A DNA stretch of 64,000 nucleotides from Plastoroseomonas arctica (lineage in GTDB: Bacteria; Pseudomonadota; Alphaproteobacteria; Acetobacterales; Acetobacteraceae), in assembly GCF_018128965.1 (NCBI RefSeq), contig NZ_JAAEDH010000018.1:1-64000 (forward strand), read 5' to 3'. The notes under the pieces are model-generated. The model was not told the DNA's origin. It was given only the letters and a program-made list of their open reading frames with translations, and made no database searches. Of the stretch, positions 22,312 to 24,681 are shown in pieces (position 1 is the stretch's first letter; the number at the start of each line of letters is the position of its first letter). The position numbers and the translations under genes are program-made.

Positions 22312-23103
22312 ATGGATCTCGGTTTGAAGGGCCGTCGCGCCCTGGTGATGGGCGCGTCCAAGGGGCTGGGGCGCGCGATCGCCAACTCGCTCGCCGCCGA
22401 AGGTGCGGCGCTGGTCATCTCCGGCCGTAGCCAGGCGAGCCTTGACGTGGCGGCCGCGGAACTGCTCGCCCTCGGCGCCAAGTCCTGCGTCGGCATCCCC
22501 GCCGATGTCGCCAACGGCGAAGACATGGACCGCCTGGCCGATGGCGCTGTCGCCGCGATGGGCGGCGTGGATATCCTCGTCCTCAACCATGGCGGCCCGC
22601 CGCCGGGCACCGCCATGCAGATCACGGAGCCTGACCTGTTCACCTGGTTCCAACGCATCACCGTCTCGCCCATCCGCATCACCATGCGGCTGCTGCCCGC
22701 CATGCGCGCGCAGAAATGGGGGCGCATCCTGGTCGTCGGCAGCACCGGCATGCAGCACCCCATCCCGCAGATCGCGCTGTCCAACACGCTCCGCGCCTCC
22801 ATCTGGTCGTGGCTCAAGACCCTGTCCGGCGAAGTCGCCGCCGATGGCGTGACCATGAACGTCATCGCGCCAGGCACCATCAAGACCGACCGCGTGCTTG
22901 AAACCGCCGGCAAGAACGCCGCGACCAAAGGCATCACCGTGGAAGAATCCCTCGCTGCCTCGGCCAAGGAAATCCCGGCGCAACGCCTCGGCATCCCCGA
23001 AGACTTTGGCCCCGCCGGCGCGTTCCTTGCCAGCGAACAAGCCAGCTACATCACCGGCACCATGATGCGCATCGACGGCGGCCGCGTCCGGGCGATGCTG
23101 TGA
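22312..23103 (+). CDS. Atypical SDR lacking the Tyr-xxx-Lys active site
   Basis: A 263-residue SDR with a cofactor loop GASKGLG (14-20), LNHGGPPPG (91-99) in place of the NNAG motif, and Ser144 in VVGSTGMQHP. At the position where Tyr and Lys are expected (157 and 161) the sequence has LSNTLRAS, giving Ser157 and Arg161. The rest of the fold is intact, including VAADGVTMNVIAPGTIKTDRV and the C-terminal SYITGTMMRIDGG. Related proteins with the NHGGPPPG motif are usually annotated as SDR oxidoreductases without known substrate. A catalytic change or loss is possible. ATG at 22312; no strong ribosome site. Confidence 0.82.
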   Translation: MDLGLKGRRALVMGASKGLGRAIANSLAAEGAALVISGRSQASLDVAAAELLALGAKSCVGIPADVANGEDMDRLADGAVAAMGGVDILVLNHGGPPPGTAMQITEPDLFTWFQRITVSPIRITMRLLPAMRAQKWGRILVVGSTGMQHPIPQIALSNTLRASIWSWLKTLSGEVAADGVTMNVIAPGTIKTDRVLETAGKNAATKGITVEESLAASAKEIPAQRLGIPEDFGPAGAFLASEQASYITGTMMRIDGGRVRAML

Positions 23104-23412
23104 TGGGTGAGGGGAGCAAGGCCAGGGGCGCTGCCCCTGGACCCCGCCAGGATCGTGTCGATCCTGAACCTCCATTTGTTGGTTCTTGGGATTGGGAGTG
23201 GGGCAGGCTCGCCGGAGGCGAGCCGGGTTGGGGAGAGGGCGCATGGAGGTAACATTGGCATGGGCGCATTCGCGACCCGCCCTCTCCCCAACCCGGCGCA
23301 CATCGATGAAACACACCCCTACCCAAGCCAGGACCAACACACGCAGGCGTCCGGGGATCGGCGCGATCCCCGGCGGGGGTCCAGGGGGCAGCGCCCCCTG
23401 GCCCTGCTTCCC
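23104..23412. repeat. Palindromic intergenic repeat island between an SDR and the hydantoinase-type operon
   Basis: This gene-free stretch is a nested palindrome. Left arm 23116-23154 and right arm 23364-23408 are imperfect inverted copies of one unit. Each arm has two hairpins: left, CCAGGGGC/GCCCCTGG and AGGATCG/CGATCCT (23149-23165); right, CCGGGGATCG/CGATCCCCGG (23351-23373) and CCAGGGGGC/GCCCCCTGG (23381-23401). Inside lie GCTCGCC/GGCGAGC (23207-23223) and an 18-bp perfect inverted repeat, 23223-23240 with 23279-23296, around a 38-base loop. Short matching blocks (TTGGTTCTTGGG against CCAAGCCAGGACCAA) occur between. The layout is like a BIME/REP-type element. It ends four bases before the next ATG. 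Confidence 0.85.

Positions 23413-24677
<1,265 letters not shown>

Positions 24678-24681
<4 letters not shown>

What the first reader, a model, noticed from the sequence alone, without database searches (positions are those of the whole stretch)
23104..23412. A 300-bp nested palindrome, probably a BIME-type repeat, precedes the hydantoinase operon
Two arms of about 40 bp are inverted copies of one another, each with two hairpins, and enclose a perfect 18-bp inverted repeat. This is far more order than expected from composition. It ends four bases before the ATG of the amidohydrolase, so the operon lacks a normal ribosome site and leader, suggesting that the insertion replaced them.
Basis: seen in the sequence. 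Interest (0 to 1): 0.55.

Follow-up and report, generated by a model that had tools for sequence, protein, structure and literature searches.

The report
Flipping palindrome repeat mirrors neighbouring genes
A 300-base palindromic DNA repeat sits right at the ends of dozens of genes in this bacterium, is often found flipped at the same spot in a related species, and appears to have made the ends of the neighbouring genes into mirror images of each other.

Summary
The nested palindrome is real (folding z = -10.4) and is one copy of a ~300-bp repeat family: 66 profile matches in the loci taken from this genome, 44 in those of a congener (G028). It is not a RAYT/BIME element: no RAYT was found, and nine RAYT loci read in other genera carry GTAG-type REPs. 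The same architecture (two hairpins, long inverted core, two hairpins) with different sequence recurs across the bacterial family.

Four properties stand out. (1) Copies abut stop codons (111 of 122 distances within -10..+15 nt); start codons touching a copy mostly lack Shine-Dalgarno sites. (2) Sites are shared with G028 (34 of 44), but the interior carries no vertical signal: the orthologue is the closest G028 copy at 0 of 33 sites. (3) Orientation at shared sites is scrambled: 13 same, 10 inverted with both flanks aligned; this site is inverted. (4) The palindrome continues ~60 bp into the flanking genes (z = 21 and 9); control junctions show no excess, nor do six orthologous G115 sites.

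Best reading: template switching between the arms perfects the palindrome, flips it and spreads symmetry into genes, while copies homogenise each other. The sequence patterns are shown; the mechanism is inferred.

The parts
23104..23412 (+). whole element, one of 66 profile matches in the G000 loci; profile match 23111-23407
23111..23195 (+). left arm (L type)
23122..23140 (+). hairpin 1, part of the module shared across the bacterial family
23148..23166 (+). hairpin 2, L-type core CAGGATCGTGTCGATCCTG
23206..23224 (+). small hairpin overlapping the foot of the central stem
   Evidence: read from the sequence
23222..23241 (+). left half of the central stem (type I core)
23278..23297 (+). right half of the central stem, perfect 20-bp complement
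23353..23371 (+). hairpin 3, R-type core GGGGATCGGCGCGATCCCC
23381..23401 (+). hairpin 4
23068..23108 (+). mirrored host flank: 3' end of the SDR gene and its stop codon
23416..23457 (+). mirrored host flank: 5' end of the hydrolase gene
22312..23103 (+). upstream SDR-family oxidoreductase gene, stop TGA 23101-23103 (family named from the sequence; no family search was run)
23413..24681 (+). downstream Zn-dependent hydrolase/carbamoylase-type gene, no Shine-Dalgarno site (family named from the sequence; no family search was run)

Best explanation
The feature is one copy of a non-coding, near-palindromic ~300-bp repeat that sits directly at stop codons. Shown: it is dispersed, most of its sites are older than the split of two congeners, its interior and orientation turn over at those fixed sites, and its palindromic symmetry extends about 60 bp into both neighbouring genes. 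Inferred: the DNA folds into a long hairpin during replication; polymerase template switching between the arms (quasipalindrome correction) makes them more alike, inverts what lies between them and gradually writes one neighbouring gene end onto the other; ectopic recombination between copies, with ends in the outer hairpins, homogenises the interiors within a genome. In operons such as this one the stop of the first gene and the start of the next meet at the foot of the hairpin, so the SD-less second gene may be reached by re-initiation.
For: Dispersed family: (reversed-pattern control 0). Stop-codon adjacency 111 of 122; 28 abutting starts (21 G000, 7 G028) with median anti-SD energy -1.5 against -5.6 kcal/mol in 421 G000 controls, p 2.9e-6, 25% against 66% at or below -4. 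Shared sites: 34 of 44 G028 matches have a partner by at least one flank. Orientation: 13 same / 10 inverted with both flanks within 20 nt of the edge; 6 / 6 if both copies also have unambiguous inner L and R arms. Turnover: nearest neighbour in own genome 58 of 61 and 33 of 40, orthologue best at 0 of 33, core type II in 14 of 61 against 0 of 40. Orthology signal decays inwards: flank z 13 (same) and 10 (inverted), 0-10 bp z 4-5, 8-32 bp z 3.3 / 1.0, deeper none. Mirror flanks: z 21.4 (0-30 bp) and 9.1 (30-60) in 61 G000 copies, 11.7 and 4.5 in 39 G028 copies, z 6.1 for 5-60 bp in 12 of 20 loci of other genera; 247 tandem and 43 convergent control junctions without excess. Score >= 20 at 14 of 61 element sites against 0 of 290 controls. 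Six G115 orthologous sites at the null level. Compensatory changes at 14 of 73 predicted pairs, 10 of them in the core stem, in 26 copies chosen for a type I core. Template switching giving both arm homogenisation and spacer inversion is described in yeast (PMC8604942: abstract and found passages) and arm perfection in E. coli (PMC7202029: abstract and start of the introduction).
Against: No flip or correction was observed directly; only three congeners are held, all in many contigs (51, ~390, ~160), G028 very probably a metagenome-assembled genome (MAG). The within-genome excess of mirror symmetry over cross-genome symmetry, expected if correction is ongoing, is small and uneven: p 3e-4 for 0-60 bp (17 sites against 3) and 0.016 for 15-40 bp, but 0.50, 0.07 and 0.80 in the other three windows. 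Allowing boundary shifts, one of six G115 sites rises to 14 against an offset null mean of 11. Codon positions gave no clear synonymous bias. In 7 of 35 shared pairs the identity was equal or higher in the orientation opposite to the call. The spacer inversions seen in yeast changed only 2-5 bp (PMC8604942), here ~200-300 bp. Lack of orthologue signal could partly be fast drift under a common structural constraint; RNAalifold's covariation term is small (-1.3 of -128 kcal/mol). G-U pairs are equal on both strands (8.40 / 8.58), which gives no support to an RNA role or to re-initiation.
Confidence: 0.6

Rival explanations
1. Site choice: the element (a MITE-like mobile repeat of unknown transposase) preferentially inserts into the centre of pre-existing imperfect palindromes at gene ends, so the mirrored flanks came first.
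For: Most flank symmetry predates the G000/G028 split (cross-genome 0.240 against random 0.150). Two of six G115 orthologous sites hold another palindromic repeat, so these sites may attract repeats.
Against: G115 flanks are at the null level at six sites. Suitable sites are rare: 0 of 290 element-free junctions reach score 20, while 14 of 61 element sites do. Within-genome symmetry exceeds cross-genome symmetry at 17 sites against 3 (0-60 bp).
Confidence: 0.2
2. Classical transposition turnover: copies repeatedly excise and re-insert at the same stop-codon hot spots in either orientation.
For: Mixed orientation and no orthologue signal inside the element; stop-codon adjacency.
Against: Outermost ~20 bp keep an orthologue signal. 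Decayed remnants lie at shared sites in G028: half element L119, collapsed L141, ~30-bp L132. No RAYT was found; other transposases were not searched.
Confidence: 0.12
3. RAYT-mobilised BIME/REPIN, as first proposed.
For: Pairs of inverted palindromic units with a variable spacer, mostly at 3' gene ends.
Against: No RAYT in the three congeners; nine RAYT loci read in other genera carry GTAG REPs; unit size and shape differ.
Confidence: 0.03
4. A selected RNA element (transcript 3'-end protection, termination or translation control) kept at fixed sites by function, with sequence drift under structural constraint.
For: Position at stop codons, preference for convergent pairs (23 of 81) and avoidance of divergent ones (1 of 60), strong folding, compensatory pairs.
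Against: No strand bias in G-U pairs; inverted orientation tolerated at shared sites; does not by itself explain mirrored coding flanks.
Confidence: 0.15

Closest known systems
REP / BIME / REPIN elements (RAYT-associated)
   Same: intergenic palindromic units in inverted pairs with a variable spacer (REPIN definition: found passages of PMC8049555), near 3' gene ends; REPs within 15 nt of an ORF end are proposed to affect translation (PMC12306157, abstract)
   Different: no RAYT found, ~85-bp double-hairpin arms, ~300-bp unit, long central stem, flips and mirrored coding flanks
CGTC / GTAG tagged REPs
   Same: palindromic repeats of alphaproteobacteria among others; CGTC REPs also lack a known transposase (PMC3733652, abstract and section 6)
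   Different: the paper states CGTC repeats are missing in Acetobacteraceae, among others (found passage); stem, loop and tag differ by inspection
ERIC, NEMIS/Correia, RUP and similar bacterial MITEs (recalled)
   Same: 100-300 bp intergenic hairpin-forming non-coding repeats (recalled)
   Different: no target duplication or parent transposase recognised here; orientation scrambled at shared sites
Template switching at inverted repeats (quasipalindrome correction)
   Same: arm homogenisation and spacer inversion, also within genes (PMC8604942, abstract and passages; PMC7202029, abstract)
   Different: there short repeats; here a dispersed ~300-bp family would seed it at dozens of sites
Coding palindromes of Nematomorpha mitochondria (PMC6649704, abstract)
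   Same: inverted repeats embedded in functional coding sequence
   Different: there within genes and perfect; here imperfect and shared between two neighbouring genes around a repeat

Membership tests
RAYT-associated BIME / REPIN | RAYT gene in the genome | tested here: not met
   PF01797 0 matches (control rings in 5 of 14); RAYT profile 0 in G000, G028, G115 (no positive control among the three)
RAYT-associated BIME / REPIN | RAYTs of the lineage flanked by the same repeat | tested here: not met
   read by eye: nine RAYT loci carry GTAG-type REPs; no full hairpin-1 unit beside them; L190 has a short edge-like stretch
RAYT-associated BIME / REPIN | inverted pair of palindromic units with variable spacer | tested here: met
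GTAG / CGTC REP superfamilies | 20-40 bp unit with unpaired GTAG or CGTC tag | tested here: not met
   by inspection of arms against the description
MITE | terminal inverted repeats | tested here: met
MITE | target-site duplication | tested here: inconclusive
   no recent empty/filled pair; G115 sites too diverged
MITE | autonomous parent element | not tested
   only RAYT/Y1 transposases were searched
Phase-variable invertible switch | inverted orientation at a fixed site | tested here: met
   10 of 23 strict sites between two species; not shown within a strain
Phase-variable invertible switch | dedicated recombinase | not tested
   no search was made
Known RNA family | Rfam match | tested here: not met
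   0 matches at gathering score in the whole window; the laxer E-value mode was not run

The most novel reading that the evidence does not exclude
A self-perfecting palindrome: a repeat family whose copies stay at fixed stop-codon sites, swap interiors and orientation, and by template switching rewrite the ends of the two adjacent protein genes into mirror images of each other, so that a selfish DNA structure steers protein-end evolution across a bacterial family.
Probability: 0.5. Interest if true: 0.82.

Novelty: new variant of a known kind. Interest (0 to 1): 0.66.

Why it matters
How palindromic repeats persist and spread without a transposase is an old question. Here sites, interiors and orientation can be followed separately between species, and the patterns point to recombination or template switching rather than transposition. 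If the symmetry really spreads into genes, a non-coding repeat is a mutational force on dozens of protein ends, visible by comparing genomes and testable in a laboratory strain. It also gives a set of SD-less operon genes to study re-initiation.

Tried and rejected
RAYT/BIME origin: rejected. RNA-strand selection by G-U asymmetry: no signal. Synonymous-site bias of mirrored positions: inconclusive. Wholesale inverted duplication of one flank onto the other: disfavoured at this site, since both flanks stay alignable to G115; at three other sites the right flank aligns weakly, so it is not excluded there. Assembly artefact for flips: judged unlikely because arm-to-arm exact stretches in the window copy are short (13 bp at most among the listed outer pairs), not tested with reads. 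Rfam: nothing at gathering score. An in-frame reading of the element (GTG 23107 to the hydrolase) was not pursued. Target-site duplication: not resolvable. Nine literature searches listed no paper that I recognised as describing this repeat; only open-licence PMC papers were searched, each listing shows at most 15 papers, and most hits were seen as listings only.

Rows dropped or doubtful: orthologue identity used 33 of 35 pairs (near full-length only); the orthology gradient 29 of 35 (split or truncated copies left out); cross-genome symmetry 26 of 35. Other-genera flanks: one search used 11 of 20 loci with two misplaced ends (L178, L180) and gave z 5.0 for 5-60 bp; one search used 13 with one misplaced end (L162); one search repeats it with 12 (z 6.1; 5.8 with 11 independent sites) and is the one reported. 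Three further G028 copies (L197-L199) were found late and are not counted; L197 lies at the orthologous site of L084:8548. The gene caller is my own codon-usage script, not a standard tool; a few of the 28 abutting starts are doubtful; element edges are good to a few bases. In one search permutations mixed L and R arms; one search corrects this. G000 loci were chosen because they hold elements, so class counts are within such loci. Control junctions score below their null in the 10 bp next to the edge (z -6.2), probably because starts and stops face each other there.

Full report
The observation. The window holds at 23104-23412 a nested palindrome as described: outer inverted arms, two hairpins in each, and a central perfect inverted repeat that is 20 bp long. 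Its folding energy is far below shuffles (z -10.4, 0 of 100). It lies between an SDR-type gene ending at 23103 and a hydrolase gene starting at 23413. The gene families are named from my reading of the proteins; no family search was run on them.

A dispersed family. The left arm matched 40 places (40 of 123 first-look candidates were scored). A degenerate arm-core pattern gave 100 matches in the genome and 80 in congener G028, against 0 for the reversed pattern. A profile from 23 copies found 66 matches in the G000 loci (two of them halves of one interrupted copy) and 44 in the G028 loci; 61 and 40 are near full length. Each full copy has a left arm (hairpins 1, 2), a long central stem of at least two sequence types, and a right arm (hairpins 3, 4). 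In 40 of 101 copies, 24 in G000 and 16 in G028, all four arm modules are of clear L-L-R-R type; the rest have at least one module that is mixed or ambiguous, mostly the outer left one or the inner right one.

Wider range. The arm matched 98 of 200 genomes drawn from the taxonomic family, in 57 of 102 genera; outside the genus most listed matches cover only the first ~48 bp. Of 20 loci from other genera I read the same architecture, with different hairpin and core sequences, in 16 (one cut by its contig end, one without a core, one with a run of N), and only a left part in four (L164, L170, L175, L180). G115, the third congener, holds at least one such variant (L200). G028 is very probably the MAG Rhodospirillales bacterium RYN_442, from matching contig lengths; that the family is Acetobacteraceae is inferred, with one 34-bp arm match on a Pseudoroseomonas plasmid.

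Position. In the G000 loci, 41 of 323 tandem, 23 of 81 convergent and 1 of 60 divergent gene pairs hold a copy. Of 122 stop-codon distances in both genomes, 111 are within -10..+15 nt. Twenty-eight start codons touch a copy; their anti-SD pairing is weak (median -1.5 kcal/mol; 25% at or below -4) compared with 421 other starts (-5.6; 66%; p 2.9e-6). A few of these 28 starts are doubtful calls inside the element. At this site G115 has GGAGG before the same ATG.

Not RAYT-driven. No Y1_Tnp or RAYT was found in the congeners; 24 of 200 family genomes have a PF01797 match, and in the nine of the twelve fetched loci that hold a RAYT the gene sits beside GTAG-type REPs. In L190 a short stretch upstream resembles this element's edge.

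Fixed sites, changing content. For 34 of 44 G028 matches an element lies at the orthologous G000 site by at least one flank. Of 35 site pairs 20 have the same and 15 the opposite orientation; some pairs are duplicates or split contigs. With both flanks aligned to within 20 nt the counts are 13 and 10, and with unambiguous inner arms 6 and 6. This window's site is inverted in G028. In 7 of 35 pairs identity was equal or higher in the opposite orientation to the one called, so single calls can be doubtful. Orthologous copies are little or no more alike than other pairs (0.712 same, 0.700 inverted, 0.694 other; p 0.11 and 0.38; in single regions the left arm of same-oriented pairs, p 0.015, and the right arm of inverted pairs, p 0.035, are slightly more alike); the nearest neighbour is in the same genome for 58 of 61 and 33 of 40 copies, the orthologue is the best G028 match at 0 of 33 sites, and core type II occurs in 14 of 61 G000 copies but 0 of 40 in G028. 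The orthologue signal is strong in the flanks and in the outermost ~20 bp and vanishes inwards. Decayed copies in G028 (half, collapsed, ~30 bp) lie at shared sites, and one G000 site has no element in G028. Together this suggests old sites with interiors replaced from other copies, ends excepted.

Mirror flanks. The left flank and the reverse complement of the right flank resemble each other more than flanks of different copies do: in G000 z 21.4 (0-30 bp), 9.1 (30-60), 2.9 (50-90) and nothing clear beyond; in G028 11.7 and 4.5; in 12 of 20 loci of other genera z 6.1 for 5-60 bp, 0 of 5000 permutations as high. In 247 tandem and 43 convergent junctions without an element there is no excess. 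At 44 of 61 sites the score passes the 95% null level; 14 of 61 reach 20, against 0 of 290 controls even with a sliding insertion point. At this site both gene ends align to their G115 orthologues. In G115 six orthologous sites score 6-10 (null about 10) where G000 scores 13-18 (p 0.016); with boundary shifts the G115 scores are 8-14 against a null of 11. Four of the six have no recognised repeat (alignment gaps 17, 74, 61, 41 bp); the other two hold a 98-bp repeat of G115's own. Most of the symmetry is shared by G000 and G028 (cross 0.240, random 0.150), with a further within-genome excess (0.258; 17 sites against 3, p 3e-4 for 0-60 bp); of four narrower windows one is significant (0.016) and three are not.

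Mechanism. Template switching between inverted repeats is known to make arms alike and to invert the spacer (PMC8604942, abstract and found passages) and to perfect quasipalindromes in E. coli (PMC7202029, abstract). It would explain the mirrored arms, the mirrored gene ends with a falling gradient, and the flips. Homogenisation across copies needs in addition recombination between copies. Both steps are inferred. An alternative is insertion into pre-existing palindromes; the G115 comparison and the rarity of such sites speak against it, on few sites. Equal G-U counts on both strands do not support an RNA role, and re-initiation at the SD-less genes is a hypothesis only.

Verdict. The element itself belongs to a known kind, intergenic palindromic repeats, but it is not a RAYT-type BIME as far as tested. 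What is unusual is the combination of fixed stop-codon sites, scrambled orientation, interiors that turn over, and symmetry that spreads into genes.

Noticed in passing
L051:1116-1213 and L201:1389-1486 (G115): G115 carries a 98-bp palindromic repeat of its own, two copies 93% alike, both at sites where G000 and G028 carry the 300-bp element.
   Followed up: partly
L064:5511-6091: A copy whose core is replaced by about 390 bp of AT-rich DNA.
   Followed up: no
L129:584-898 (G028): One G028 contig joins the flank of G000 site L085 (C11) to the flank of site L076 (C8) across an element, so elements may be rearrangement breakpoints.
   Followed up: no
L106, L133, L161; L100, L140, L173; L063, L143, L174: Three of 20 copies in other genera lie at the end of the same gene as copies in G000/G028 (one beside a gene I read as murA), although core sequences differ.
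   Followed up: partly
L181-L184, L186-L188, L190, L191: RAYT genes in other genera of the family beside GTAG-type REPs.
   Followed up: partly
window 23107-24681: An open frame from GTG 23107 runs through the whole element into the hydrolase gene.
   Followed up: no
plasmids NZ_CP115854.1, NZ_CP108415.1, NZ_CP108308.1: 30-34 bp of the arm occur on plasmids of Pseudoroseomonas cervicalis and two Streptomyces; convergence or transfer is open.
   Followed up: no
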